Shown here: in pieces, positions 16,820 through 30,185 of the stretch | Layout of the letters: each line of letters begins with the position of its first letter | Numbering within the stretch: the stretch's first letter is position 1 | DNA from: a virus | Length of the DNA stretch: 33,887 bases | Virus record (IMG/VR): IMGVR_UViG_3300027396_000058 | Span: 1 to 33,887 of that record | Direction: 5' to 3' (one strand) | Notes under the pieces: generated by a model | Seen by the model: the letters and a program-made list of their open reading frames with translations, nothing else | Databases searched by the model: none | Told to the model about the DNA's origin: nothing | Position numbers and translations under genes: made by a program

Positions 16820-19800
16820 CTAGCCGCGCTGGGCCAGCAGCTCGCGGATCCGTTTAACCCTCGGGTCTTCCTCGCATTGCGCTTCCTGCGCCTGCTTGGG
16901 CCGGGGCGGTTTGGCACCCGTCTGGGAGATGATCGCCTGCACGAGCGCGATCTTGGCGGCTTTATCGGTAGGCATGACGGCCTCGGTGGTTTTTTTGAAT
17001 TTTTCTTCTTTCACGGCCATTAAAAACGCCTCCATGGTGGGAGCCAGCGTTTTCATTTCTTGTACGGTTGGCCAATATGGGTGCCCGTTGTTGCCAGCTA
17101 GATACGTGTTTTCCCGTCCGTCTGCGGCAAGTTTTTGCTGCACATAGGTTTCAAAAATGCGCGCAAAAGATTCACTGCGCGATAGAAAATAAACTGCTTC
17201 TGGGTGATTTAAGGTTCCATAGTCTTTGAGAAGTTCTCCCTGCAGTCTTTTGAAATAACCTGATTGGTGGTAATCTGCAAAAAGAAGTTTGGATATTGAT
17301 TTTTCTGCGGGCGAAGCGTTGGGGCCTACCAGCATTGTAGCGTCAGAAAGATACAATTTTTTATTGTCTGAGCCCTTGCTTTGCACCAAATAGTGATCCA
17401 TGGCATGGCCCCATTCGTGAGCCAAACTGCCAACACCGTTTTTTCGGGTGAGGTTGATAACATTCTTGTCGGACTCGTAGTGCGCTACTGCTCCGCCTCG
17501 TCCTCTGGCTCCTATAGCTAGGCCCAATTGCCCGCCCAAAGAAATGTCCCGGTCGGAAAATCCGGTCACATCCGCCAAGTCGGCCATAGCCTCCGAGGTT
17601 TTTTGCAAGTGGTGCAGGCGTTCTTTGTCCGTGACACTGTTGCCCCATTGCACGCCGCGCAACCCCACGCCTTCCATCAAAAACTTTCTGCCCGTTTCCA
17701 AAGTGTGTGCGTCAATGGCTCTGCCTCCCTTACGCGTGGCGTAGGACACGTATGCCTTGCTGGCATCCCAGCGCTTGTTGGTGTGATTGACCGTGTCAAA
17801 GGTCTGGTTGAAAGATTTTCCTTCAAGAATGTCCATCACGTGATTCTTGATAGTGGCCGCTCTTTCATTAATATCTGAAGCTTGATCTGGATTTTTTCCT
17901 GCGCGCAATCTTTTGCCAAAATCATTCATCTTGCCCAAAACGCTGTTGGCTCCACGATTGGTTAATCGGTTATAACTATCTACAAGAGCATTGGCTACTG
18001 GGTTAAATCTGTCGCCATGATCGCGACCAAATTTCAATTGTTTACCTTGGCCGGTTTGCCGAAATTTACTTATAAGTTCTCCAGTTTTTTTTCTCAACTC
18101 GCTAACTATTTTGACAAAATCAACTTCTTTTTCAGCTAATTCTTCTCCCAGTTTTTTCATTGTTGTAAAAGCTTCGTAGTATTGGGCCCGAAGTTTCTCC
18201 GGTGTTGAAACTTGGTCTTCTTTTGATGCCTTATAAATTCCTGGCTCTTTGGGGAATGTTTTTAAGGCTAGATGAGCGGCTAAAACGGACAGAGGGTGCC
18301 CTTTTTCAATTTTGTCCATTAACTTGCTGGGTTCGCTGTTAAGCAGTACATCTCGTTTAACCAATTCTTCTGCTGTTCCTTCTTTTTCGGCACTTTCTAA
18401 GTTTGTCCAACGTCTGCGGTTGTGCCGCGCAGACTGCTCAATATCCTCGCCAAAATTACCAATGGAACTGTTTCTGGCAAATTGGTAATCCTGTTGGTTG
18501 GCCGATGCTACACGGTTTGCTACGGCTCTCGGAGTATCACCTTTTTGTGGCTCTGCCGCTGCCGCCGCCGGTGTGCTGGGCTCGTCCATGGGGTCCACGT
18601 CGGTGCCGTTGTTCACTTGGTCGATTTTGGCCTTGGTGCCCGGCCCAAACAGGCCAAACATGTCCTGCGTATCATCTCTCTTGGCGGCGTCCGGCCGGTC
18701 CAGCGGGTTGTCCGTGCCGGCGGTCGTCGGCTCCGGCGCGCTCTGGGGCTTGTCCGCGCCGATGGGTACCGGCTCGCCAAACAGGCCGGGCATGGTCTCG
18801 GGCGATTTGGGTTTGTTGTCTGGCAGGGGGTTGCCAAACAGGTCGGCGGCCGGCTTGGTGCCTGCAGGCAAAATGTCTTTTAGTGAAAGGCTTTTGTCGA
18901 CGTCATTATAAAACTGCTTGGCGCTGTCTGTGATGGCAAATTTCTTATCTTTGCCATACCTTGGCTCGCCATTGATTAGCGGCCAGGCATAGATGACTCC
19001 GGGGCCTTTCTTGCTTATGACATACTCGTTGCCCATCTTGTCTTTAAACTTGTCATCTACTTGAATTTTATCAAAACCGCTTCTGTCGCTGTCGTTTTTC
19101 AAGTCTGTTTGGGATTTTTTGTAATGAAAATACTCTTGAAATTCAGGATTCATCCTATGAATTAACGACGCGTTAATAGGAAGGCCAGCGTCTGCCAGTC
19201 GATAAATGTGTTTACCCTTAGCTATCTCTGGATAATCGTTGATTGGAACCCATTTAGTGCCGTCCTTGAACATTTGCGCCAATTCAACAATTTTCTTTCT
19301 TAGGCCAACGTCTGCATTTATGTAATCAAGGTATCCGTGATTTACGTATCCATTTTTATCCATCCAAACGCCAACCATGGCGCCATATATGGACATGAGG
19401 CCGGGCTCGGGTGGTGTTTCCTGTGTAGTTTTTCCTGTGTTGGGGTCATAAACTGTTTCAGTTCCATCACCTGCAGATTGCTTGATTTTGTGTTTTATTG
19501 TCTTTGGCATATCGGTGGTAGCTATAAAAGCACCGCCTTTGTAGTGCTCACCGTTTGGGCCAAACTCGCCGCCGGCGGCAGCTCTTTTCTGTTTTGGCTC
19601 CTCCTGCTTGGCCACCAGTTCCCCATTACGCCACTCTCGGCCCTCGGCATCGATGCCGGTGAAGCCGGGCTGGTCGGCGGCTGGGGCTACTGGTTCTGAG
19701 CTGCTTTTTCCCTGGCTGCCTTGCTCGCCGCTGTCGCCTGGCGCCCGACCTCTTTCATCCAGGGGCGCTTGATCTGGAGCTCCTGGCGGATTTTCATCTG

Positions 19801-22800
19801 CTCCTCGTCCAGTTGCTGGCCGTCCGCTATCGCTCGCTCCAGTTGGTCGAAGTTGATCGCGTCCACCAGCAATTGCGCGTGCACCGAGGAGCCCCTTTGC
19901 GATGTCAGGGGGAATTTTTCCTTGTTCATATAGTCCGCGGGTGTCATTTTCTAACTCCTTCAGAAGTTCCTCTTTATTGTATCCGCCTATGCCCTGCTGC
20001 AAATAGGCGGCCACTGCGTTTTCGTCCACTTGCTTCGCTTTACCAAAACCCAGGTTGTTGTTGATGATGATGGAAGGCACCTTGCCTTCTTCGAACAGTT
20101 CCAGCGCCGCGCGGCGAGCTTTCAAATTGGCTGGCACGGCCACGCTTAAGGGCACGGTGCGCGCCAGGCTGGTCGGGTCGCCGGCGTCAAACTTTTCCCG
20201 CGCTTGCATGGCGCGCTTGACCACGCCGTCTTTCCAGGCGTCGGCCGGGGCACGGTCGATGAACACAAATTGCCCGTCCAGGCCATGCTTGGCGGCGCCG
20301 TCCATGAGTTCCTTGGTCCAGGCGCTGTCGTCGGACACGGAGTCCAGTACCACCGGGTATTCGGTGACCTGGATAATATCCTTAGTAGCAGTGCCCTTCC
20401 CGCTGCCACCGCCGCCGCCCAGGACCAGGAATTGGTTGTTCCCCTTCCCCTTCATGAGGGCCCAGGCTTCATTCAACATGCGCATGTTCGCGTAGCTTGC
20501 GGCGTCATGGATGGAGCCGGAATTGGTGCCTTTGTACGTCGGAAACAGGTCGCGCCAGTCGTCGCAGTTGCAGGTGATGCTGATTAGGTTGCCGTCGGCG
20601 TCGAACGTGCCCATTTTGGTCAGGTATTCCTGACGGAATTTTGGCCATTCCCGGCGCACCAGCTCTTGGGCTTCGCGATGCTCCACCACTTCCTGCTCGT
20701 CCAGATTGTAGAAGGCTTTTGGCGCAACGGGCTCGTAGTCGGTCCACCCGGGCACGTTTTCCAGTGGCGCCGGGATACGAAGCTTTTTGCCGTTTTGCAC
20801 GACCACGGTATGCTCGCCGCCGGTGCCAAAGTATTTTTCCGGGGCGCTGGTGGCCGAGGGCGTTTTTGGGGCAGGCGCCGCGGGAACGGGTGCTTTTTGG
20901 GAGGTTAAATAACTTCGGCCCTGTGCGGTGATTCGGCCGGAAGCGTCCACCAGGTTTTGCGCCTGGAGGCTTGCCACCGCCGCCGGAGTGATGAGGGAGC
21001 TGTTGTGGGCCTTGCGGTTGGCCCGGAGTCGCAGCGCGTTAAGGACCGCCAGCTCGGCGTCGGAACCGCGCTCGGGAGCGGGTGCCTCGGGGCCTACCAG
21101 GGCCTTGGCGGCCTTGGGTCCGGTCGCTTGGCGCACCGGCTTTCCCTTCTGCGCGTACAGATACAGGCGGCCGTCGTTGGTGAGCTGGCCTGCGTCGTTG
21201 ATGTAGCCTTTTTCCTTGAGTTCCAGCAGGGCTGGCACCGTGATGTGGGCGGCGTTGTGCGGCTTGCGGTTGCCCTTCAGGCGCAGCGCGTCCAGGGCGA
21301 GGGCATTGGCGTCCAGGCCGTTGCCGGCAGACGCTGCCTTGGGTTCTTCCTGCTTGGCCACCAATTCCCCGTTGCGCCATTCGCGCCCTTGGGCGTCGAT
21401 GCCGGTGAAGCCGGGTTCCTCGGGCTTGGCCGATTTTTCGGCGGCCGGCGTGGGCTCGTCCTGGGGTCCAAACAGGGAAGGTCCTAGATCTCCGGCATTT
21501 CCTCCCCGTAAATCTCCCGATACAGTTCCCGGTTCCGTTGTTCCTGCGCTCGGGTCACCTTGAGGATCTTGTGCACCTGCTCGCAGATCGTTTTCAGCTC
21601 CTCCGCTGATAATGGCTTGAATGGCTCCACGGGCGTCCGCAAGGGCCTTTTCGACGATGGTTCGTTTTTGTTTGGGGCTGGCACTGGCGTAATCCTCCAC
21701 GTGGGCGTTGATGGCGTCACTCAGGGGCCCAGCTAGGTGCTGGAACTGCTCAAATCCCTGTTTTATTCTATCGGCAGCCTTGGAAAGTTCTTTGTTTTTC
21801 TCCACCTGCAGCACGTTGCCAGCGCCCGCAATGTTTTTGGCACGACGTGCGTTGCCGGCGACCGTGTAGTCGTTCACTTCCTGCGCCAGAGCGGCACGGA
21901 GTTTGTTTTTCAGCTCGGCTTTTTCCAGAAACAGGCTCTTGCCGTCGTCGGTATTTCCGAACAGGTCCATCTGGCCGCCGCCCTGCTGCTTGGGCGCGTT
22001 GGCCACGTCCATGGCTGCCTGCTCCAGGGTGGCCGCGCTAAATTCCTTATTGTGCTTGTCCCGCTGCTCCAGGTAGTGGTTGTACAGTTGCTCTTGCGCG
22101 TCGTGGTCCTTCAAGTGGCGTCCGATCGCCACGGCCTTGTCTTCCTCCAGCCGGCCGGTAAGCAGGTCGTTGAAAATTCGATCGCTCAGGCCCCGGAGCT
22201 GGACCGCGTTGTCCACCACTTTTTCCTTGAGGCTGACGCCGTGCCCCTTGAGGTCTTCGATGGATTGCTTGGAATCTCGCAGGAACTTGGCGGCGTCTAG
22301 GGCCGTGCCGCGTCCCTCGGCCATGTTGATGAGGGCCCCAGTGGCCCGGGCAGTGGTGGCGTTTGGCGCGATAATCATCTGCACGTTCATTTTTTGATGG
22401 CCGGCACGCCGGGCCAATTCCATGCGATGATGGCCGTTCACGACGTACGTCTTCCCGTCGGCCGGGTCTTTCCACGCGTGCACCACGCCCGCAAACAGCG
22501 GGTTGAATTTGTTCACGCCCTTCAGGTGGTCGCCGGTTCCCGTGGACGCGTCCAGGGATTGCTTGTATTGAAAGCGCTTGGGGTCCACGTGGATCTGATT
22601 CGTGTCTAGGCTGACCAGGTCCCCGGCTTCTCCAATGCCGGACTGATTGCCGTGGCTGGTGGCCTGTTCGGCGGGCTGGCTGGCGAGCTTGGACAGATCC
22701 TTGACGCTCAGGCGCATGAGGTCGTTGGCCACGCTGCGGACCTGCTCGGGGTCTGCATGCGGTCCCAGGTTGGACAGGGATTTGGAAGCGCTGGGGGCGC

Positions 22801-23059
22801 CGCCGGCGGCGGAGTGGCTTGTCCCAGAACTAGGGGCGGTTTGCTGGCCGTGGCTGGCCAGGGCCTGCTTTTCTTCCGGGCTGGGATTTTTGACCTGGCG
22901 GCCGTCGCGGTAGTAGCGCTTGTGCCCAAGCTTGTCCACGCGCATGCCGGTGAAGCCGGCTTCCAGGACCCGATGACCGCGCGAGCGGCTTTGCAGCCCT
23001 TCCACTAGAAGGCGGATATAGAAAGCGGCTGTTGCGCTGCCGGTCGGTGGTTTGCCCAT
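16820..23059 (-). CDS. Giant polyvalent protein: ParB-like, zeta-like kinase, LPD1 metallopeptidase
   Basis: The 2,079-residue protein strings together unlike domains. (1) A linker unit (about 32-58; GFTGMRVDKLGHKRYY). (2) A ParB/sulfiredoxin-like domain (about 140-260) with VVNGHHRMELA near 206. (3) Helical regions. (4) Two helical repeats (LRLKGNRKPHNAAHITV and LRLRANRKAHNSSLIT, about 580-710). (5) A P-loop kinase of zeta-toxin type with Walker A GGGGGSGKGT near 880. (6) A second and third linker (PGFTGID-x-GREWRNGEL at about 548 and 1130). (7) A C-terminal LPD1-type domain with RGVQWGNSV, ARGRGGAVAHYE and the zinc motif HEWGH near 1880. Polyvalent proteins are known from phages and conjugative elements and are thought to enter the host with the DNA and counter defences. 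Its place among head genes fits packaging in the virion. I start it at ATG 23059; the open frame further upstream overlaps other genes and is spurious. Confidence 0.9.
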   Translation of the reverse strand: MGKPPTGSATAAFYIRLLVEGLQSRSRGHRVLEAGFTGMRVDKLGHKRYYRDGRQVKNPSPEEKQALASHGQQTAPSSGTSHSAAGGAPSASKSLSNLGPHADPEQVRSVANDLMRLSVKDLSKLASQPAEQATSHGNQSGIGEAGDLVSLDTNQIHVDPKRFQYKQSLDASTGTGDHLKGVNKFNPLFAGVVHAWKDPADGKTYVVNGHHRMELARRAGHQKMNVQMIIAPNATTARATGALINMAEGRGTALDAAKFLRDSKQSIEDLKGHGVSLKEKVVDNAVQLRGLSDRIFNDLLTGRLEEDKAVAIGRHLKDHDAQEQLYNHYLEQRDKHNKEFSAATLEQAAMDVANAPKQQGGGQMDLFGNTDDGKSLFLEKAELKNKLRAALAQEVNDYTVAGNARRAKNIAGAGNVLQVEKNKELSKAADRIKQGFEQFQHLAGPLSDAINAHVEDYASASPKQKRTIVEKALADARGAIQAIISGGAENDLRAGAQDPQGDPSAGTTEPGTVSGDLRGGNAGDLGPSLFGPQDEPTPAAEKSAKPEEPGFTGIDAQGREWRNGELVAKQEEPKAASAGNGLDANALALDALRLKGNRKPHNAAHITVPALLELKEKGYINDAGQLTNDGRLYLYAQKGKPVRQATGPKAAKALVGPEAPAPERGSDAELAVLNALRLRANRKAHNSSLITPAAVASLQAQNLVDASGRITAQGRSYLTSQKAPVPAAPAPKTPSATSAPEKYFGTGGEHTVVVQNGKKLRIPAPLENVPGWTDYEPVAPKAFYNLDEQEVVEHREAQELVRREWPKFRQEYLTKMGTFDADGNLISITCNCDDWRDLFPTYKGTNSGSIHDAASYANMRMLNEAWALMKGKGNNQFLVLGGGGGSGKGTATKDIIQVTEYPVVLDSVSDDSAWTKELMDGAAKHGLDGQFVFIDRAPADAWKDGVVKRAMQAREKFDAGDPTSLARTVPLSVAVPANLKARRAALELFEEGKVPSIIINNNLGFGKAKQVDENAVAAYLQQGIGGYNKEELLKELENDTRGLYEQGKIPPDIAKGLLGARAIAGGRDQLRPTGASDSGRPATGRGADENPPGAPDQAPLDERGRAPGDSGEQGSQGKSSSEPVAPAADQPGFTGIDAEGREWRNGELVAKQEEPKQKRAAAGGEFGPNGEHYKGGAFIATTDMPKTIKHKIKQSAGDGTETVYDPNTGKTTQETPPEPGLMSIYGAMVGVWMDKNGYVNHGYLDYINADVGLRKKIVELAQMFKDGTKWVPINDYPEIAKGKHIYRLADAGLPINASLIHRMNPEFQEYFHYKKSQTDLKNDSDRSGFDKIQVDDKFKDKMGNEYVISKKGPGVIYAWPLINGEPRYGKDKKFAITDSAKQFYNDVDKSLSLKDILPAGTKPAADLFGNPLPDNKPKSPETMPGLFGEPVPIGADKPQSAPEPTTAGTDNPLDRPDAAKRDDTQDMFGLFGPGTKAKIDQVNNGTDVDPMDEPSTPAAAAAEPQKGDTPRAVANRVASANQQDYQFARNSSIGNFGEDIEQSARHNRRRWTNLESAEKEGTAEELVKRDVLLNSEPSKLMDKIEKGHPLSVLAAHLALKTFPKEPGIYKASKEDQVSTPEKLRAQYYEAFTTMKKLGEELAEKEVDFVKIVSELRKKTGELISKFRQTGQGKQLKFGRDHGDRFNPVANALVDSYNRLTNRGANSVLGKMNDFGKRLRAGKNPDQASDINERAATIKNHVMDILEGKSFNQTFDTVNHTNKRWDASKAYVSYATRKGGRAIDAHTLETGRKFLMEGVGLRGVQWGNSVTDKERLHHLQKTSEAMADLADVTGFSDRDISLGGQLGLAIGARGRGGAVAHYESDKNVINLTRKNGVGSLAHEWGHAMDHYLVQSKGSDNKKLYLSDATMLVGPNASPAEKSISKLLFADYHQSGYFKRLQGELLKDYGTLNHPEAVYFLSRSESFARIFETYVQQKLAADGRENTYLAGNNGHPYWPTVQEMKTLAPTMEAFLMAVKEEKFKKTTEAVMPTDKAAKIALVQAIISQTGAKPPRPKQAQEAQCEEDPRVKRIRELLAQRG

Positions 23060-23097
23060 GGTTCTGCCCTGGCTAAAAGTGCAGCGACCTGCTGCCT

Positions 23098-23328
23098 TTA
23101 GCTCGGCAGCGGGTCGCAGGTGATGGGGTTTTCGGTGGCTAGGATGCCGCAGGCGGCCAGGTAGGCTGCTCGGGCGTCCTCGGGATTGTCGGCCTCCACC
23201 ACCAGGGTGGGGTTGTTGCGAAGGCTGAGCTGGTAGCGCCCCTGGGCGCGCGGCTGCTGGTCGGGAGACACGACCGGGGCAACCGCGCTGGCAGGGACAG
23301 ACTCGGGTTTGGTCTTTGCGCGCGCCAT
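23098..23328 (-). CDS. Small protein after the capsid gene
   Basis: The 76-residue product has a Lys/Ala/Pro-rich N-terminus and a compact part (GRYQLSLRNNPTLVVEADNPEDARAAY split by a turn, then LAACGILATENPITCDPLPS) with an alpha/beta look. It starts on the capsid stop as TAATG and is therefore translationally coupled to the capsid. I recognise no family. A head accessory role is inferred from order only. Confidence 0.6.
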   Translation of the reverse strand: MARAKTKPESVPASAVAPVVSPDQQPRAQGRYQLSLRNNPTLVVEADNPEDARAAYLAACGILATENPITCDPLPS

Positions 23329-24500
23329 TATGTAGGCGACCCAAAGGCCACAAAGCGGGGATCTCGCACCGCGGCGACGCCCATGAGGGACGCCTTGACC
23401 GCAAGCGCGATGTCCTGATTGAACTCCATGGGGTTCTGCGCAGGAGCTTCCACCACGGTGAGCGGCTTGGCTTCGCGCCAGATGAACGCCTTCTTGAAGT
23501 CGCCCAGGAACACGTACTTGTCCGCGTTGGTTGCGGAAACGCCAGATTCCACCAGCAGACGGCGAGCGTGCGGGCTGGTGAGGATCTGGTAGTCCTTGTC
23601 CAGGGGATTGGGTGCCTCGATCTGGTCAGGGTTCCCGCTGGTCGCAAAATCACCCGAGCGGGTGTTCGTTGCGGTAATGGCCCTGCGGGTCCTGTACTTA
23701 TTCGCGGGCATGACAAAGAGCTGCTTGGGCTCGATGAGGATGTTCTTGCCGGTGTTGGGGTCCAGCATGTTCATGAAAAGCTGTTCCAGCGTATTGATGC
23801 TGCTCCAGTCCGTCATGGTGAAGGTCGCCACCTTGTTGACCCAGCTTCCGCTGGTCAGGTAGGTGTTGTAGGAGCTGCCGTTCCACTTGTGGTTGTTCGT
23901 CAGGCCGAGCACCACCTTGAGGATGCGTTCCTCGCGGGCGATGCCGCAGTAGGTGCCGACCGAGCCTGCCGAGTCCAGGATCTGGCCGGTCAGATCGCTG
24001 TAGATCGCTTCCATGGTTACGGCGCAAATCTTGCCAATCTTCTCAATGGCAGGATATTCGATGTAGTTCGGGCTGAAGGAAGTATGCGGATAGGGCATGC
24101 CTTCCTCGACCTTTTCCACGCTGTCGATCACGTTGGACAGCCATGGCACCTTCTGTTCCTTGAGGTTGCCGTTCGTGACAGGTACGGTCTCGGCCACTTC
24201 GTCGCCGATGAGGGCGGCCAATTCGTACTTGTCCTTGATCTCGTTCACCAACAACTGGCCGGTGATGGCCGTGAAGCTGGATGCGTCCACGCCTTCGGAG
24301 GCTTCGCGCACGCGCACGCCGCTGTTGTAGCGGTAGAGCTGTTCAGCCCAGTCGGAGCCCATGAAGGACTCCGCGAGCTGGCGGATGCTGATGGTGTGGC
24401 GGTTGATCTTCTTGTCGCGGATCGCGTCGCCCAAAAACTTGCTGGTCTTCGCGATGCCGTAGCTCTCGGTGAGCTGCTTGAGTTTTCGTCCTAGTGACAT
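23328..24500 (-). CDS. Major capsid protein (HK97 fold)
   Basis: The 390-residue protein has a helical, charged N-terminal part (MSLGRKLKQLTESYG). A middle domain follows, with 'GNLKEQKVPWLSNVIDSVEKVEEGMPYP' (split by a short loop) and 'YIEYPAIEKIGKICAVTMEAI'. The A-domain end includes PLTVVEAPAQNPMEFNQDIA, then KASLMGVAAVRDPRFVAF. This is the HK97-type capsid pattern. The gene follows the protease-scaffold and decoration genes and is preceded by AGGAAAGGACC. No separate delta-domain cleavage site is evident. Confidence 0.88.
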   Translation of the reverse strand: MSLGRKLKQLTESYGIAKTSKFLGDAIRDKKINRHTISIRQLAESFMGSDWAEQLYRYNSGVRVREASEGVDASSFTAITGQLLVNEIKDKYELAALIGDEVAETVPVTNGNLKEQKVPWLSNVIDSVEKVEEGMPYPHTSFSPNYIEYPAIEKIGKICAVTMEAIYSDLTGQILDSAGSVGTYCGIAREERILKVVLGLTNNHKWNGSSYNTYLTSGSWVNKVATFTMTDWSSINTLEQLFMNMLDPNTGKNILIEPKQLFVMPANKYRTRRAITATNTRSGDFATSGNPDQIEAPNPLDKDYQILTSPHARRLLVESGVSATNADKYVFLGDFKKAFIWREAKPLTVVEAPAQNPMEFNQDIALAVKASLMGVAAVRDPRFVAFGSPT

Positions 24501-24540
24501 GGTCTTAGGTCCTTTCCTAGAGGGTTATTTTGGGGGTGGG

Positions 24541-25014
24541 TTAGCGGGCCACGCTGTTGAGGGTTGACAGGAGCTGCACCTTGATTTTCGTGGCGCTGGC
24601 GGCGTTCTCGACCACCCGGCCGATAGCCAGGGCCGCGGAAGCCACTTTGGCCAGGGTGCCGTCCAGGAGCGCGTTGCCGGTGTCCTTGGCGGGGCCGACG
24701 TAGTCGCCGATCACGTAGCTGGCGCTCGAGCAGTCAAATTCAAAAATGCCGGAGCAGTCCACACGGATGATGTTGTCCGTGGAGTTGCCGAACACGCGGG
24801 CCTCGGTATCCAGCTTCTTTTGGCCGCTCACGCCCAGGAAGGCGGTGGCAAAATTGGTCTGGGTGGTGGCGAGGTTGGTGTCCCAGGTTTGGGCGGACGC
24901 CTTGTAGACGTAGCCGGTGGCGTAGCCGAGCAGGTCGCCCACGGAGACCGCGGTAGCGGTCTGAACAGGGGCACTGACAGGGTTGGTTTCGCCGTAGAGG
25001 TAGCGAGATGACAT
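24541..25014 (-). CDS. Head decoration protein (DUF2190-like)
   Basis: The 157-residue beta-rich protein contains 'VSVGDLLGYATGYVYKAS', then 'IIRVDCSGIFEFDC' and 'YVIGDYVGPAKDTGN', ending AIGRVVENAASATKIKVQLL. This pattern is close to DUF2190-type capsid-stabilising or decoration proteins. It sits between scaffold and capsid genes, as decoration genes do. The ribosome binding site is AAGGAAAGGACC. Confidence 0.7.
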   Translation of the reverse strand: MSSRYLYGETNPVSAPVQTATAVSVGDLLGYATGYVYKASAQTWDTNLATTQTNFATAFLGVSGQKKLDTEARVFGNSTDNIIRVDCSGIFEFDCSSASYVIGDYVGPAKDTGNALLDGTLAKVASAALAIGRVVENAASATKIKVQLLSTLNSVAR

Positions 25015-25029
25015 GGGTAGGTCCTTTCC

Positions 25030-25743
25030 TTAGTTGGCGAGCAGGTCGCGAACAAACGATTCGTAGGTGTCACCTGCCACGGTGGCGGGTGCGCTGATGG
25101 GTTTAACGGTGCGTTTGGCGATCGCGGCGCGGTCGGCGACCAGCGGCTTCCATTCGCTTTCCTTGAGCTGCAGGAGCTGGCCTACGAACACCTTGGTGAT
25201 CGCTTCCTTGGGCAGCTTTGCTTCCTTGCATGCCTTGAGGGCCTTGGCCCTCTTGACGCGCAGGGCTTCCTGCACGCGCAGGGCGTCCAGTTCCGCGGTC
25301 AGGGCGGCAATCTTGGGATCCACTGATTCTTCGGCTTTTTTCTTGGTGGGCATGGGGGGAGGCATTTCCTCGTCACTGCCGAGCAGGGCGGCTTCCATTG
25401 CGGCGGCCTCGTCGTCGGTGCCGTAGTCCTCGCCTTCCTCGACCTCGTCGGGGGGCAGGACGTCGGATTCGGATCCATCCATCGCCGGGGTATCGTCCTC
25501 GACGATAGGTTCCAAGCCTGGCTCTGCGCCGGCGGCCGGTTCCTCGTCCATCAATTTCAATGCGCCCAGGATTTTTTTGCGCTTTTCGTCGGTGCTCATG
25601 CTAGCGTCGTTGAGGATGGCTAGCACGGCGTTTCCCAGGTGGGAAGCAAAGTCCCCTTCGTCGTCTGCCTCTTGGGTCGGTTGCATTTCCCCAGGCGGCA
25701 TTTGAACGGCTGGGTCGTGATCCATGGTTTCCATGGGGTCCAT
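25030..25743 (-). CDS. Nested scaffold protein (in-frame internal start)
   Basis: An ATG at 25743 (MDPMETMDHD) inside the protease-scaffold gene is preceded by AAGAAAGGAACGTC. This is the same ribosome binding site style as those of the tail tube, decoration and capsid genes. It falls just after the protease domain (codon 176 of the parent), so the 237-residue product would be exactly the acidic scaffold. Nested scaffolds are known from lambda (C/Nu3) and related phages. Here the signal is unusually clean. Confidence 0.75.
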   Translation of the reverse strand: MDPMETMDHDPAVQMPPGEMQPTQEADDEGDFASHLGNAVLAILNDASMSTDEKRKKILGALKLMDEEPAAGAEPGLEPIVEDDTPAMDGSESDVLPPDEVEEGEDYGTDDEAAAMEAALLGSDEEMPPPMPTKKKAEESVDPKIAALTAELDALRVQEALRVKRAKALKACKEAKLPKEAITKVFVGQLLQLKESEWKPLVADRAAIAKRTVKPISAPATVAGDTYESFVRDLLAN

Positions 25744-26268
25744 GACGTTCCTTTCTTGATAACTTTCTAACAGTCCCTTGGTCGTGGCCGGATCTGCGAC
25801 CAGATCCACACTGTCCACGTCCCGTATTTCAGTGACCAGCTCCGTGCCCTGCGCGGTGGTCTGCACCTCCGCGGTGGCGTTGTGGCTGAGTCCAATTGCG
25901 TTGGGGTCGTGGGCGACCCACCAGCGGAAAGCCTCGGCCAACGGATGCGCCGGGTTGTACTGCAGGTCCCCAAACAGTCCCTCGGGGGTGAAGCGCACGT
26001 TCACCAGGCGCCCAAAGCGCTCGGAGAACTTGCGCGGCTCGCTGCCGGTGTTGTGGTCCAGGTTGACCTTGCAGCCTTCGTATTTGGCCGCGGCGGCCTG
26101 CACGGCCTCGCGGGTGTAGACGCGGTTATTGCGGCTGCGGAATCCCAAGATCTTGCAATTGGGAATGGTCGGCACGCTCGGAGCGGGCGCGGCGGTCAGC
26201 GTGAGCGCTGCCAGCTTCGGCAGGCCCTTGATGACATCTTCGCGCAAACTGCAAATTTTTTGGCTCAT
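25030..26268 (-). CDS. Prohead protease fused to scaffold
   Basis: The first about 175 residues form a prohead protease: His72 (VNLDHNTG), 'FGRLVNVRFTPEGLFGDL', Ser128 (AIGLSHNATAEV), and 'DVDSVDLVADPATTKGLL'. The rest is a charged, acidic scaffold with a helical end (DPKIAALTAELDALRVQEAL). Such fusions cut themselves and the capsid during head maturation. I prefer ATG 26268. An in-frame GTG at 26283 adds five residues but would lie inside the GTCATTTA motif. Neither start has a clear ribosome binding site. An internal start yields scaffold alone (25030-25743). Confidence 0.82.
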   Translation of the reverse strand: MSQKICSLREDVIKGLPKLAALTLTAAPAPSVPTIPNCKILGFRSRNNRVYTREAVQAAAAKYEGCKVNLDHNTGSEPRKFSERFGRLVNVRFTPEGLFGDLQYNPAHPLAEAFRWWVAHDPNAIGLSHNATAEVQTTAQGTELVTEIRDVDSVDLVADPATTKGLLESYQERNVMDPMETMDHDPAVQMPPGEMQPTQEADDEGDFASHLGNAVLAILNDASMSTDEKRKKILGALKLMDEEPAAGAEPGLEPIVEDDTPAMDGSESDVLPPDEVEEGEDYGTDDEAAAMEAALLGSDEEMPPPMPTKKKAEESVDPKIAALTAELDALRVQEALRVKRAKALKACKEAKLPKEAITKVFVGQLLQLKESEWKPLVADRAAIAKRTVKPISAPATVAGDTYESFVRDLLAN

Positions 26269-26272
26269 ACAA

Positions 26273-26281
26273 GTAAATGAC
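26273..26281 (-). promoter_or_regulatory. GTCATTTAC junction motif variant
   Basis: One base away from the GTCATTTAT consensus, between the sigma-like gene stop and the protease start. No ribosome binding site follows it here, unlike the other junctions. Confidence 0.35.
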
Positions 26282-26290
26282 ACGCGTGCG

Positions 26291-26770
26291 TTACTCGCAG
26301 AAGATCTGCAGCATTTCCACGCCCTGCTCGTAGAGGGCCAGGGTGTCGCCGGCCGTGTGGCCGGTGGCGCGGGCGGTGCGGGTCAGGCTCTGGCGGTGCA
26401 GGATGCGCTCGCGCAGAACCTCGGCGTGCTCGGTGGGCAGGACCTGCAGCGCGTCCTCCAGCAGGTCAGTCTCCAGCAGCTCGCGCTCGGTGCGCTCCTG
26501 ATGTTCGCCGATGAGCGGCTCCGCGGAATCTTCCCAGCGCGGCCGGCGGCCAAACACGTAGCGGTAGACCGAGCCCTTCACCCAGAGCCGGGCGTAGGCC
26601 CCAAAGGTGACGCCGCGGTCGGGAGCCCAGCGCTGGCTGGCCTTCAGCAGGCCCAGCCACCCCTGCTGGATCAGGTCGTCCAGTTCGTAGTGGGACGTGT
26701 GGTAATACTGGCTGGCCACTTGGAGCACCAGCGGCTCATGGGAAAGGATGATGTGTTGGTCCACTGCCAC
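26291..26770 (-). CDS. Sigma-70-like RNA polymerase factor
   Basis: The 159-residue protein has a recognisable sigma region 2 (about 8-71): HEPLVLQVASQYYH, then ELDDLIQQGWLGLLKA, RGVTFGAYARLWVKGSVYRY. A weaker region 4-like segment follows (103-154; EDALQVLPTEHAEVLRERIL, then a degenerate helix-turn-helix). It would direct host RNA polymerase to particular promoters. Its place between portal and protease genes, inside the late structural unit, is unusual. The start is GTG 26770, with a weak GCGGA upstream; a second GTG lies two codons on. An alternative is a structural or DNA-binding protein that borrowed the fold. Confidence 0.75.
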   Translation of the reverse strand: MAVDQHIILSHEPLVLQVASQYYHTSHYELDDLIQQGWLGLLKASQRWAPDRGVTFGAYARLWVKGSVYRYVFGRRPRWEDSAEPLIGEHQERTERELLETDLLEDALQVLPTEHAEVLRERILHRQSLTRTARATGHTAGDTLALYEQGVEMLQIFCE

Positions 26771-26781
26771 GGAGCGTCCGC

Positions 26782-28356
26782 CTAGAAGGTCTCGGCCTGT
26801 GCGTCGGCCGGTTCGGCTGGGGCTGGCGCCCCGGCTGCGTCACTGCCGGCTGCGTCCTGCGCCGGGTTGGTTTCGGGCATGGCAGGGGATCCCCCCTGCG
26901 GCGGTTGCTGTTGCTGTTGCTGCTGGCTGCCCTGCGGCGGGTCCGCCTGCAGGTTCTTGTGCTCCGTCTCGTAATCCAGGCCCAATTCCGAGCAAATGGT
27001 CTGCTTGCTCTTGATGCCCATTTCGAGATAAGTGCGGTTGGTGGCGGCTTCCTTGTCGGTGTCACGGGTGACCAGGCTGGGGCCTTCCGCCTTGATGGTG
27101 ACTTCCGTGAGGGCTTCGGCGGGCAGGATGCCGCGCTCGACGGCGGCGCGGATCTGGCGCCAGATCAGGCTGCGGTTGGGGTTCAGGCGGCGCTCGCCAA
27201 AGGCTCCGCCCAGGAGCGCCTGCAGGCGCTTAAACGTGCGGTGCGCGGGCCCCTCGGCCACCAGGGCGCTGGCGTAGTTGTTGTTGCTGGCGTCCGCGCT
27301 CATCATGGTCTCGGAAATGCCGTAGCGGCTGGCGATGGCGCGCAGGTTGGCCTGCAGTGCCTCGATCAGCCCGCCAGCGTCCAGATTCGCCGCGGGAAAC
27401 TCGTAGTCGATATTGTCCGAGCTGGTCAGGATGGTGCCGTAGCCAAAGCGGTTCAGGTTGGTGGTCTGGCTGGTGGCGGGGTCGGTCACGGTGGCGTCCG
27501 TGGCGGTGGCGCTCAGGGCGGCCAGGGCGTCCGGGGGTGCCTCGCGCACCTTGCGAATCACCGCAAACTTGGCGCGGGCCTTCGCCAGGGTAATCAGGCT
27601 GGTGAGCAGATCCTCGCAAAAGCGGAAGTTGCCCTCGACGGCGTATGTCGTGGGCAGGCCGCGCTTGGCGTTGGAGTCCGTGTTCAGCTTCAGGTGCAGC
27701 ACTTCGTCCGCGGGAATCAGGACCGGCGTCAGGCTCTCGTAGGGGCGCTCGATGACCCAGTAGCCGCGCACGGTCTGCGCGTCTTCGGGGTCGCTCTCGA
27801 TGCCAAAGCTATGGTCGGGCTGGCCGGTGGAATCCTCGCGGGAGCGCACCAGCTCGGGCTCGATGAAGCGCACGGCCACCAGGCCCCCCTGCTGGGGGAA
27901 TGTCCGCAGGAAGCATTCGCCGTCCACGTGCAGGCGGCGCACGGCCTCGGCCTCGATCTCGGGCAGGCTGTTGGCCTCCCGGAACAGGTCCACGAGCTCC
28001 TGCACCTGCCGCACCAAAGTTTCGCTGGTGCCCTTCTTCCGCGGCATGGCCACGTAGGTCAGGCCGGTGCCAACGACATAGCTGATGTGCGCGGCCACGG
28101 CGGCGATGGCGTATTCGTTGTTCTTGCAAATGAGGCGGCTGCGGTCCCGGATCTGCTTGAGCTGGAACCAGTTGATGTAGGTGGGCAGGCTTTCGCCGGT
28201 CAGGCGGTTGTCGCGGCGGGCCAGGTAGGTCTGGGAGCTGCCGTCCAGGAAGCCATAGGGCGATCCCTCCGCAAACAGGTCCCGGCTGTCCCCGTAGGGG
28301 AAGAAGGGGAGACTGGCGTGAAAGTCGGTGGATTCCTGCGCGCGGCGTAGGTTCAT
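26782..28356 (-). CDS. Portal protein
   Basis: The 524-residue protein has the order of lambda/HK97-type portals: an N-terminal clip/wing part with SRLICKNNEYAIAAVAAH, 'VRRLHVDGECFLRTF', 'VRFIEPELVRSREDS', 'IPADEVLHLKLNTDSNAKRG', the long helix with 'LEALQANLRAIASRYGISE' (I for L at its start), and 'IRAAVERGILPAEAL'. The C-terminal tail is low-complexity, with seven Gln in a row and Pro/Ala stretches. Terminase lies upstream and protease downstream, as expected. Confidence 0.9.
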   Translation of the reverse strand: MNLRRAQESTDFHASLPFFPYGDSRDLFAEGSPYGFLDGSSQTYLARRDNRLTGESLPTYINWFQLKQIRDRSRLICKNNEYAIAAVAAHISYVVGTGLTYVAMPRKKGTSETLVRQVQELVDLFREANSLPEIEAEAVRRLHVDGECFLRTFPQQGGLVAVRFIEPELVRSREDSTGQPDHSFGIESDPEDAQTVRGYWVIERPYESLTPVLIPADEVLHLKLNTDSNAKRGLPTTYAVEGNFRFCEDLLTSLITLAKARAKFAVIRKVREAPPDALAALSATATDATVTDPATSQTTNLNRFGYGTILTSSDNIDYEFPAANLDAGGLIEALQANLRAIASRYGISETMMSADASNNNYASALVAEGPAHRTFKRLQALLGGAFGERRLNPNRSLIWRQIRAAVERGILPAEALTEVTIKAEGPSLVTRDTDKEAATNRTYLEMGIKSKQTICSELGLDYETEHKNLQADPPQGSQQQQQQQPPQGGSPAMPETNPAQDAAGSDAAGAPAPAEPADAQAETF

Positions 28357-28697: not shown

Positions 28698-30185
28698 TTA
28701 TAAATGACCCGTCACGCGCTCCACGGCTTGGGAGGCGGGCAGGTAACAGGCCAGGTTGAACGCGTCCGCCAGGTCGGGGGATTTTCCCAGGCGGCGCTTG
28801 GTCTGGGTCTTCGCCTCGACGACGCGGCGGTTCATGCTGTCCACGACAAACACCGGCGCCTTCAGCTCGGCGACCAGTTGCTGCTGGGTCGCCAGGGGCA
28901 GCGCCTGCATGCTCAGGTTGCCGTCGCGCGCCAGCTCGGCCGCCAGGAACCAGAGCTCCGAGCGCAGGTTGGGAAAATCGCCGGGCCAGTTGCTGGTGGT
29001 GGACGAGTTCACGCCCACGAAATGAAAGCGCTCGGTGCCAATGCCGGCGCAGTCCACGACGCCGGCGCCCAGGCCGCCCTCGTCGATGTAGATGGGCACG
29101 CTGCGCGCGGGCTGGTGAACGGTGCCCTGCTCCGCGGCCAGCTCCTTGAGGCGTTGGGCGGTCTGGGTGATCGTCCAGCCGCGGTGGGCCTCCAGGTGGG
29201 TGATCGCCCGGCCGCGGCGCACGACCATGACGGTGCGGTCGTCCCCAAAACGGGCTACGTCGCAGCCGATGGCGGCCAGCCAGTTGGGCTGGACCTCCAT
29301 GGGTTGCAAAAGCAATGCCAGGGCGCTGTCCCCCCAGACGCTGTTGATCGCGCGGGTCGGCCAGCGGCCCAAAACCTGTATCTCAAACAGGGGATCTTCC
29401 GGCAGGTAGGTCTGCCCCTCGAACGTGAACGCGTTCCAGGGGTGCGGCTCGTCGTCGCGCAGGCGTTTGCACTCGGTGGTTAGCCGCTCGGTGACTTGCT
29501 CGTAGGTGACGGCGCCCGGCACCACCAGACGCCGCTCGGTGACGTTCGGGTGATCCAGAGCGCTCATTTCTAGCACGGTGTGCCGGCCGCTCGATTCTTC
29601 GGCGTAGGCCGGGCTGCTCACGTCGTAGGGGTTGTAGATGCCCAGAAAACAGTAGTTGGGCCCATGGGAAAGCATGGTTCGCGCGCGTTCCCAAAAGACC
29701 TTGTCGACGCCGGCGGCCTCGTCAAACACGATCATGAGGGCGGTGCCGTGCCGGCCCTGGAAGGCGTCGGCTTTGTTCGCGGTCAGGCCGTGGATGAAAT
29801 GGTTTGGGTTTTCCTCGAGCCTGGTAGACTTAGGCAAAAAATGCGGATCGCCGCGGCGCACGTTGCGCAGCTCCTTGAACAACAGATCGGCTACCTGAAT
29901 GTGTGTGGGCGCGGTGGTCAAGCAGATGCCGGGGTTGCGCGTGTCGTAGAACCAGCTTGCCGCCAGGCTGGCGATAAAGGTTTTTCCGACCGCGTGGGCG
30001 GCGCGCACCAGGACGCTGTAGGGTGGCTGGGTGAGGGCGCGCAGGATGGCCGCCTGCTGGGCGGTGATGCGCAGCCCCTTGGCGGCGGCGTATTCGACCG
30101 GGTCGGTCGGCAGGGCCCGGGTGCGGGCTTCCAGCTCCTGGCGGGTGGCCCTAGCTCGGGTCAGTAGAGTTCGAATGCTTGGCAA
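28698..30185 (-). CDS. terL: Terminase large subunit
   Basis: The 495-residue protein has a Walker A-like loop (61-70, RAAHAVGKTF), a Walker B (150-156, LMIVFDE) and the RNase H-like nuclease with Asp309 (IGCDVARFGDDRT) and Asp368 (VPIYIDEGGLGAG). It pumps DNA into the prohead and cuts the concatemer. TTG 30185 is the likely start, with GAGGAG three to four bases upstream and no ATG near. It overlaps the small subunit by 35 bases. Confidence 0.93.
   Translation of the reverse strand: MPSIRTLLTRARATRQELEARTRALPTDPVEYAAAKGLRITAQQAAILRALTQPPYSVLVRAAHAVGKTFIASLAASWFYDTRNPGICLTTAPTHIQVADLLFKELRNVRRGDPHFLPKSTRLEENPNHFIHGLTANKADAFQGRHGTALMIVFDEAAGVDKVFWERARTMLSHGPNYCFLGIYNPYDVSSPAYAEESSGRHTVLEMSALDHPNVTERRLVVPGAVTYEQVTERLTTECKRLRDDEPHPWNAFTFEGQTYLPEDPLFEIQVLGRWPTRAINSVWGDSALALLLQPMEVQPNWLAAIGCDVARFGDDRTVMVVRRGRAITHLEAHRGWTITQTAQRLKELAAEQGTVHQPARSVPIYIDEGGLGAGVVDCAGIGTERFHFVGVNSSTTSNWPGDFPNLRSELWFLAAELARDGNLSMQALPLATQQQLVAELKAPVFVVDSMNRRVVEAKTQTKRRLGKSPDLADAFNLACYLPASQAVERVTGHL
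28700..28708 (-). promoter_or_regulatory. GTCATTTAT junction motif at terminase end
   Basis: The motif overlaps the last codons of the terminase (GGT CAT TTA TAA), followed by AAGAAAGGAGC for the next gene. It is thus coding and junctional at once. Confidence 0.45.

What the first reader, a model, noticed from the sequence alone, without database searches (positions are those of the whole stretch)
16820..23059. A 2,079-residue polyvalent protein built from ParB-like, zeta-like kinase and HEWGH metallopeptidase parts
One gene covers nearly a fifth of the window, in the head-neck region, and combines at least three catalytic-type domains with unknown stretches. It may be packed in the virion and act on host targets at entry. 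The helical double repeat (about 580-710) and the region around residues 1150-1450 match nothing I know.
Basis: partly seen in the sequence, partly recalled or inferred. Interest (0 to 1): 0.75.

Follow-up and report, generated by a model that had tools for sequence, protein, structure and literature searches.

The report
Modular effector protein of phage heads
This phage gene makes one giant protein, probably carried in the virus head and sent into the bacterium with the DNA, that combines a DNA-gripping module often fused to the head's DNA gate with enzyme parts that related phages swap in and out like cassettes.

Summary
Minus-strand 23059..16820 is one 2079-aa ORF between the major capsid and tail-completion genes, with ParB-like, zeta-like and HEWGH-zincin parts, all with conserved active-site residues. 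It belongs to the known polyvalent-protein class (Iyer 2017), as a new variant.

(1) The 'ParB' is a ParB N-domain plus the ParB HTH, in a family that Pfam's ParB models miss. Relatives occur in 72 viral loci and 23 cellular contigs, and the module is fused in one ORF to three different portal families.
(2) The zeta kinase has the gonococcal zeta1 fold and shuffled motif order (UDP-MurNAc 4'-kinase type).
(3) The 580-720 'helical repeat' is two winged helices.
(4) The gene is a mosaic. Constant high-GC3 blocks frame two low-GC3 blocks that are replaced by other domains in a 67% relative; one swapped block, the metallopeptidase, occurs as an independent ~520-aa unit in more than 30 phages.
(5) The N-terminus looks like a cleavable capsid-targeting peptide.
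(6) A QxDLFG motif, like a sliding-clamp docking motif, is conserved in a disordered linker.

Best reading: a head-packaged, injected effector carrier with swappable payloads. Packaging, ejection and all activities are inferred. Region 1155-1400 stays unresolved.

The parts
16820..23059 (-). whole gene, 2079 aa, ATG start
   Evidence: start codon aligned with L003 homologue
22961..23059 (-). residues 1-33: candidate capsid-targeting peptide, helix 7-23, two [LIV]xE|[AG] sites (E20, E33)
   Evidence: both sites kept in L003, L091, L092; shuffle P 0.001-0.003 each, sequences not independent; helix in model
22883..22954 (-). residues 36-59: first 'FTG' hairpin motif (FTG..KDKLGHxRYYxDGRQVKNP)
   Evidence: strands in model
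22310..22624 (-). residues 146-250: ParB N-domain (NTP-binding fold; DPKRFQYK, NGHHR)
   Evidence: fold Z 10.1, rmsd 2.8 over 96 to 7bm8; motifs invariant in 35 nr relatives
21995..22306 (-). residues 252-355: ParB/Noc-type HTH DNA-binding domain
   Evidence: fold Z 8.1, rmsd 3.5 over 95, 24% identity to Spo0J-parS 4umk
21956..21973 (-). residues 363-368 QMDLFG: conserved short motif in a disordered linker, sliding-clamp-motif-like
   Evidence: entropy 0.45-0.83 bits at L, F, G against a linker mean of 2.38 in 46 sequences; pLDDT under 50
21602..21931 (-). residues 377-486: helical tail of the ParB module
21344..21415 (-). residues 549-572: second 'FTG' motif (PGFTGIDAQGREWRNGELVAKQEE)
21146..21310 (-). 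winged helix 1 (residues 584-638)
   Evidence: pLDDT above 90; wHTH-PRTase_assc E 6e-6, just under cut-off
20900..21061 (-). winged helix 2 (residues 667-720)
   Evidence: L091 and L092 keep one copy only
19865..20839 (-). residues 741-1065: zeta-like kinase of ng_zeta1 topology (DDWR 833-836 before Walker K888)
   Evidence: PF06414 above cut-off; fold Z 23.7, rmsd 2.8 over 263 to 6eph; motif order
19598..19669 (-). residues 1131-1154: third 'FTG' motif, high-GC3 island
   Evidence: predicted hairpin, pLDDT 69-78
18860..19597 (-). residues 1155-1400: swappable block 1, unresolved; second half (1318-1400) weakly matches a segment inserted before ParB in L091
   Evidence: GC3 0.455; replaced in L003; L091 match E 3e-7; pLDDT under 50
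18590..18859 (-). residues 1401-1490: constant LFG-rich linker
   Evidence: GC3 0.856; blastn block with L003
16994..18589 (-). residues 1491-2022: swappable block 2, MP1 helical part + zincin metallopeptidase + LPD1
   Evidence: replaced in L003; GC3 0.455; same unit in more than 30 viral loci at 35-44% identity
17405..17419 (-). HEWGH active-site motif (1881-1885), followed by D1888
16823..16993 (-). residues 2023-2079: constant C-terminal tail
   Evidence: 63% identity to L003, GC3 0.81
26782..28356 (-). true portal gene (lambda family, PF05136)
23328..24500 (-). major capsid protein (PF25209); three [LIV]xE|[AS] sites in its first 66 residues
25030..26283 (-). candidate prohead protease/scaffold, by position and reading of the sequence only
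   Evidence: no Pfam match, no phage-record match

Best explanation
The gene encodes a head-associated polyvalent effector carrier. An N-terminal peptide of about 33 residues targets the protein to the prohead core and is probably clipped there (inferred). A ParB-type NTP-binding plus HTH module lets it hold DNA near the portal or follow the genome into the cell (fold shown, function inferred). The payload is a zeta kinase, expected to phosphorylate UDP-MurNAc/UDP-GlcNAc and so perturb peptidoglycan synthesis, and a zincin that may cut the polyprotein into working units or attack host proteins (folds shown, activities inferred). The payload blocks between the constant linkers are exchanged between related phages as cassettes (shown for two blocks).
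For: Portal link: the ParB module is C-terminal to the portal in one ORF in 16 loci, plus L070 and L104 with a third portal family. L022 carries portal + zincin + 2H/Acb1-like + ParB, and L029, L030 and L094 carry portal + ParB + zeta. In Prochlorococcus phage P-SCSP1f the module sits in a 2563-aa protein whose gene size and position suggest an internal virion protein (authors' speculation, PMC9860041).

Cassettes: L003 shares 63% identity over 9-1211, 63% over the C-tail and the LFG block, but has other domains at 1155-1400 and 1491-2022. GC3 is 0.72-0.86 in the constant blocks other than the 1066-1132 linker (0.42) and 0.455 in the swapped ones, rank 1 of 69 circular shifts. The zincin unit occurs alone in other phages with ends at the same residues.

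Active sites: conserved in relatives.

Zeta: fold Z 23.7 to ng_zeta1, with the catalytic-Asp-type motif placed before the P-loop, as in the rewired ng_zeta1.

Targeting: conserved N-terminal LxE|A sites, with precedents in P1 DarB (N-terminal 30 aa sufficient) and T4 (L/I-X-E cleavage).
Against: No proteomics or activity data. In most ParB loci no portal was recognised next to the module (72 'none_seen', though only three portal queries were used). The candidate prohead protease has no profile match. The window's own E33 site is VLE, not L/IxE. The cassette swap rests on one full-length relative plus partial contigs L091 and L092. ParB homology is weak by sequence: TIGR00180 in 6 of 46 members, best E 0.0012.
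Confidence: 0.62

Rival explanations
1. The protein is a head-assembly or portal-vertex accessory. The ParB module organises or grips DNA during packaging, and the enzymatic parts are not delivered into the host.
For: Fusion of the ParB module to three portal families and to a minor head protein.
Against: Its partners are zeta kinase, zincin, 2H/Acb1-like, RelA/SpoT-like and RadC domains, typical of injected conflict effectors (PMC5512222), and they are exchanged, unlike structural parts.
Confidence: 0.17
2. The protein is made late and acts in the producing cell, for instance the zeta kinase starving wall synthesis to help lysis, without being packaged.
For: The gene lies in the late operon. 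ng_zeta1 expression lyses E. coli (PMC5923241).
Against: Portal fusions of the same zeta and ParB modules (L029, L030, L094) and the conserved targeting-like N-terminus.
Confidence: 0.14
3. The mosaic is an assembly chimera of two phages.
For: GC3 changes sharply inside the gene. The independent contig L002 confirms the sequence only to residue 1232.
Against: L002 crosses the first boundary at 100% identity. The frame stays open over 2079 codons. LFG block and C-tail behind the swapped blocks match L003 in order. The zincin unit is an intact natural unit.
Confidence: 0.04

Closest known systems
Polyvalent proteins (Iyer et al. 2017, PMC5512222)
   Same: Many unrelated catalytic domains in one late-gene phage protein; a zincin with the extra His before and Asp after HEXXH; an LPD1 domain; zeta, ParB, RelA/SpoT and 2H domains already listed for the class; portal fusions already noted for PBECR, 2H and InPase domains
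   Different: Here the ParB part is an N-domain plus HTH module that recurs on three portal families; two payload blocks are shown to be exchanged within one constant frame; the zeta is of the rewired ng_zeta1 type
Phage P1 DarB/DdrB
   Same: Large head-packaged antirestriction proteins; DdrB has a ParB-like domain and a zincin; DarB is targeted by its N-terminal 30 residues (PMC9024508)
   Different: Different domains; the DdrB-type ParB Pfam model was not among the families shown as matched; no helicase/methylase
Gonococcal zeta1 toxin (ng_zeta1, PDB 6eph)
   Same: Kinase fold, Z 23.7 over 263 residues; catalytic-Asp-type block placed before the P-loop
   Different: No C-terminal OB domain seen and no epsilon antitoxin identified; embedded in a virion-type polyprotein
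Chromosomal ParB/Noc/Spo0J CTPase clamps
   Same: N-domain and HTH folds; G-H-x-R in place of the G-E-R-R box
   Different: No ParB dimerisation domain recognised; a helical tail and a QxDLFG linker instead; not seen by Pfam ParB models, so surveys built on ParB profiles may miss it (PMC12704722, whose text does not mention portals)
T4 internal proteins and Alt
   Same: N-terminal propeptide with L/I-X-E-like sites for head targeting (PMC9026906)
   Different: Much larger protein; protease family not established here

Membership tests
Polyvalent proteins | several domains of disparate activity in one polypeptide | tested here: met
Polyvalent proteins | phage-type zincin: conserved His at end of strand 2, HEXXH, Asp three residues after it | tested here: met
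   AHYE 1859-1862, HEWGHAMD 1881-1888, conserved in relatives
Polyvalent proteins | LPD-type domains | tested here: met
   LPD1 33 bits, cut-off 27
Polyvalent proteins | encoded among late/packaging genes of a portal-terminase phage | tested here: met
   terminase, portal and capsid genes adjacent
Polyvalent proteins | carried in the virion and injected | not testable with these tools
   only indirect: portal fusions
ParB CTPase-fold proteins | ParB N-domain fold with conserved Arg of the P-motif | tested here: met
   Z 10.1 to 7bm8; R212 invariant
ParB CTPase-fold proteins | central HTH DNA-binding domain | tested here: met
   Z 8.1 to 4umk; TIGR00180 in 6 of 46 members
ParB CTPase-fold proteins | C-terminal dimerisation domain | tested here: inconclusive
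   helical tail instead; not searched alone
ParB CTPase-fold proteins | NTP binding and DNA clamping | not testable with these tools
   needs biochemistry
DdrB-like ParB | match to the DdrB-type ParB family | tested here: inconclusive
   not among the 25 families shown for 36 members; fold search cannot exclude it
Zeta toxins, ng_zeta1 subclass | zeta kinase fold and P-loop | tested here: met
   GGGGSGKGT conserved
Zeta toxins, ng_zeta1 subclass | rewired order: catalytic Asp block before the P-loop | tested here: met
   DDWR 833-836 before K888; ng_zeta1 Asp56 before Lys115; exact catalytic Asp not proven
Zeta toxins, ng_zeta1 subclass | partner epsilon antitoxin | tested here: inconclusive
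   no PHROG match for the small neighbouring genes; no dedicated search
Sliding-clamp-binding proteins | QxxLF-type motif in an exposed segment | tested here: met
   QMDLF in a low-pLDDT linker; Q in 27 of 46 relatives, L and F in about 85%
Sliding-clamp-binding proteins | actual clamp binding | not testable with these tools
   none
T4-type head-targeted substrates | N-terminal propeptide with L/I-X-E cleavage site | tested here: met
   relatives have LME/LIE and LLE/ILE; window has LVE and VLE
T4-type head-targeted substrates | gp21-like protease in the same phage | tested here: inconclusive
   candidate gene 25030-26283 has no profile match

The most novel reading that the evidence does not exclude
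A portal-linked, ParB-type NTP-gated DNA clamp acts as a general phage delivery chassis. It rides the genome into the cell, docks on the host sliding clamp through QxDLFG, and brings exchangeable effector cassettes (zeta kinase, zincin, Acb1-like, RelA-like, RadC) to the incoming DNA, where the zincin or the head protease releases them.
Probability: 0.2. Interest if true: 0.82.

Novelty: new variant of a known kind. Interest (0 to 1): 0.6.

Why it matters
It links a ParB-fold family that Pfam's ParB models do not see to the portal vertex of phages whose relatives turn up in contigs of many bacterial phyla. That suggests a common way of placing effectors on incoming DNA. It also shows payload exchange inside one gene, with boundaries visible in base composition, as in polymorphic toxins. 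Cultured relatives of the ParB module exist (Prochlorococcus P-SCSP1 phages), so packaging and ejection can be tested directly. Pipelines that call such proteins 'portal' on the phrog_21 hit are misled.

Tried and rejected
- PHROG's 'portal protein' call for residues 144-482: rejected, because the hit covers only the accessory module and the portal is a separate gene.
- DNase reading of the ParB part: less likely than an NTP-dependent clamp because the HTH domain is present; not excluded.
- Close relatives or host in cellular genomes: the A1 scan found none, the A5 scan found only ParB-module relatives, and the phylum-wide genome search attempts failed for technical reasons.
- Swappable block 1 (1155-1400): no Pfam match, no viral relative except a near-identical contig, low-confidence model.
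- Sequence profile of zeta against PDB: no zeta hit; only fold and Pfam link them.
- Orphan cassettes downstream of the L003 gene: none seen; unrelated opposite-strand genes instead.
- Foldseek on model B gave no significant match; the zincin assignment rests on VIA-align, motif and LPD1.
- DNA-level search of cultured phages with the gene: no match.
Full report
OBSERVATION. The window is a 33,887-base viral record. The gene lies on the minus strand, 23059..16820, 2079 aa. Upstream are terminase (28698-30185), lambda-type portal (26782-28356), a sigma-70 region-2 protein, a candidate protease/scaffold and the capsid protein (23328-24500). Downstream are a candidate tail terminator and the tail genes. 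The start codon aligns with the start of the relative in L003. No cultured phage carries anything similar over more than about 17% of the length.

ParB MODULE (133-486). The module is found in 72 viral loci and in 23 cellular contigs, labelled Planctomycetota, Cyanobacteria, Acidobacteria, Verrucomicrobia, Gemmatimonadaceae, Chloroflexota, Deltaproteobacteria and others. In 35 non-redundant members DPxRFQYK, the NGHxR box and a NIAEGxGxxxDAAK box are nearly or fully invariant. The predicted structure matches the ParB N-domain (7bm8, Z 10.1, rmsd 2.8, 96 aligned) and, for 252-355, the ParB/Noc HTH domain (4umk, Z 8.1, rmsd 3.5, 95 aligned, 24% identity). Sequence support is weak but in the right register (TIGR00180 in 6 of 46 members; 6t1f at E 0.095). 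None of 36 members showed a Pfam ParB family among those listed.

PORTAL LINK. In 16 loci the module follows a portal in the same ORF, either lambda-type (L031, L050, L055 and others) or Mu-type (L022, L026, L028, L029, L030, L094). L070 and L104 add a third portal family, phrog_113. L022 encodes portal, metallopeptidase unit, a 2H domain scoring above the Acb1 (anti-CBASS) cut-off, and ParB in 1950 aa. L029, L030 and L094 encode portal, ParB and zeta. Other ParB partners are a canonical zeta (L097), 2H with a RelA/SpoT-like region (L108), and RadC with LPD23 (L100). The zeta of L097 has the canonical motif order and that of the window the shuffled one, so zeta kinases seem to have joined this module at least twice. 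In P-SCSP1f the module lies in a 2563-aa protein downstream of the tail tubular gene; the authors of PMC9860041 speculate that the P-SCSP1 genes of this size and position encode internal virion proteins. Together these tie the module to the head, although none is direct evidence for the window's protein.

SHORT MOTIF. Between the HTH and the helical tail lies QMDLFG (363-368), in a segment with pLDDT under 50. In 46 sequences the linker has a mean entropy of 2.38 bits, but L, F and G have 0.75, 0.83 and 0.45, and Q is present in 27. This looks like a docking motif. The bacterial sliding-clamp motif QL[SD]LF is the closest one I know (own knowledge); the extra Gly is not part of it, so another partner is possible.

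ZETA KINASE (741-1065). Pfam Zeta_toxin is above its cut-off. The model matches gonococcal zeta1 with Z 23.7 and rmsd 2.8 over 263 residues, against about 11 for other zetas. The invariant DDWR...GTN block lies before the P-loop. ng_zeta1 differs from other zetas by the same kind of shuffling, with Asp56 before Lys115; it phosphorylates UDP-MurNAc at the 4'-OH and kills E. coli by draining wall precursors. Substrate and effect are therefore inferred for the phage domain.

WINGED HELICES. 584-638 and 667-720 are two copies of a winged helix; L091 and L092 keep one.

METALLOPEPTIDASE (1491-2022). A helical part (MP1) is followed by a zincin with AHYE, HEWGHAMD and ExFARxFE conserved. VIA-align places 604-905 of the model on lethal-factor-type and other zincins (Z about 11 and 6-7), as Iyer et al. 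reported for this class. The same 510-530-aa unit occurs in more than 30 viral loci at 35-44% identity, many of them as 690-940-aa proteins; in L162 and L146 its gene follows a ParB-module gene.

CASSETTES. L003 is 63% identical over 9-1211, then carries unrelated sequence in the two blocks, yet keeps the third FTG motif, the LFG block and the C-tail. DNA identity is also confined to the constant blocks. GC3 is 0.72-0.86 in these blocks, 0.42 in the 1066-1132 linker and 0.455 in both swapped blocks, and the true labelling gives the largest difference among 69 circular shifts. L091 and L092 carry further, different insertions before ParB, and L092 another behind the second FTG motif. The FTG motif, a predicted hairpin, stands at 36, 551 and 1133. 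It may be a linker, a recognition site or a recombination seam; the data do not decide.

N-TERMINUS. All four relatives begin with a helix and two [LIV]xE|[AG] sites within 33 residues. A third, IGE|A at 144, stands at the start of ParB. The capsid protein has three such sites in its first 66 residues. T4 gp21 cuts after L/I-X-E, and 30 N-terminal residues target P1 DarB to the head. A cleavable targeting peptide is the simplest reading. The candidate protease has no profile match.

JUDGEMENT. The protein is a member of a known class with new features: a portal-linked ParB-type module, a rewired zeta and visible cassette exchange. Steps shown: domain folds, motif conservation, fusions, mosaic. 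Steps inferred: packaging, processing, ejection, NTP-gated DNA holding, kinase substrate, peptidase target, clamp docking.

Noticed in passing
window 26291-26770 (-): A 159-aa protein with only sigma-70 region 2 (PF04542, E 1e-14) lies between the portal and the candidate protease gene; it is conserved at 60-62% identity at the same place in L003, L091 and L092.
   Followed up: partly
PHROG phrog_21 profile positions 1014-1351: The 'portal protein' family includes the ParB module as its C-terminal part, so stand-alone ParB-module proteins are annotated as portals.
   Followed up: yes
L022 2061-7910: One ORF holds Mu-type portal, metallopeptidase unit, an Acb1-like 2H domain (28.3 bits, cut-off 27) and ParB.
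   Followed up: partly
L187 4651-12339 (P-SCSP1f record 19402-27093): The 2563-aa hypothetical protein of a cultured Prochlorococcus phage carries the ParB module and an HESFH motif.
   Followed up: partly
L118 7731-9392 and 9377-10447: In Nostoc punctiforme NIES-2108 the ParB module is split over two overlapping frames, possibly a frameshift.
   Followed up: no
L067/L112 984-1278 and 1366-1691 (protein): Two ParB modules in tandem in one protein of a Myxococcales prophage-like contig.
   Followed up: no
window 5023-7617 (-): An 864-aa ORF between the integrase end and the tail fibre region matches only PHROGs of unknown function and no Pfam family.
   Followed up: no
L003 13741-14670: About 1 kb of opposite-strand small genes is inserted between the polyvalent gene and the next shared gene, absent from the window.
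   Followed up: partly
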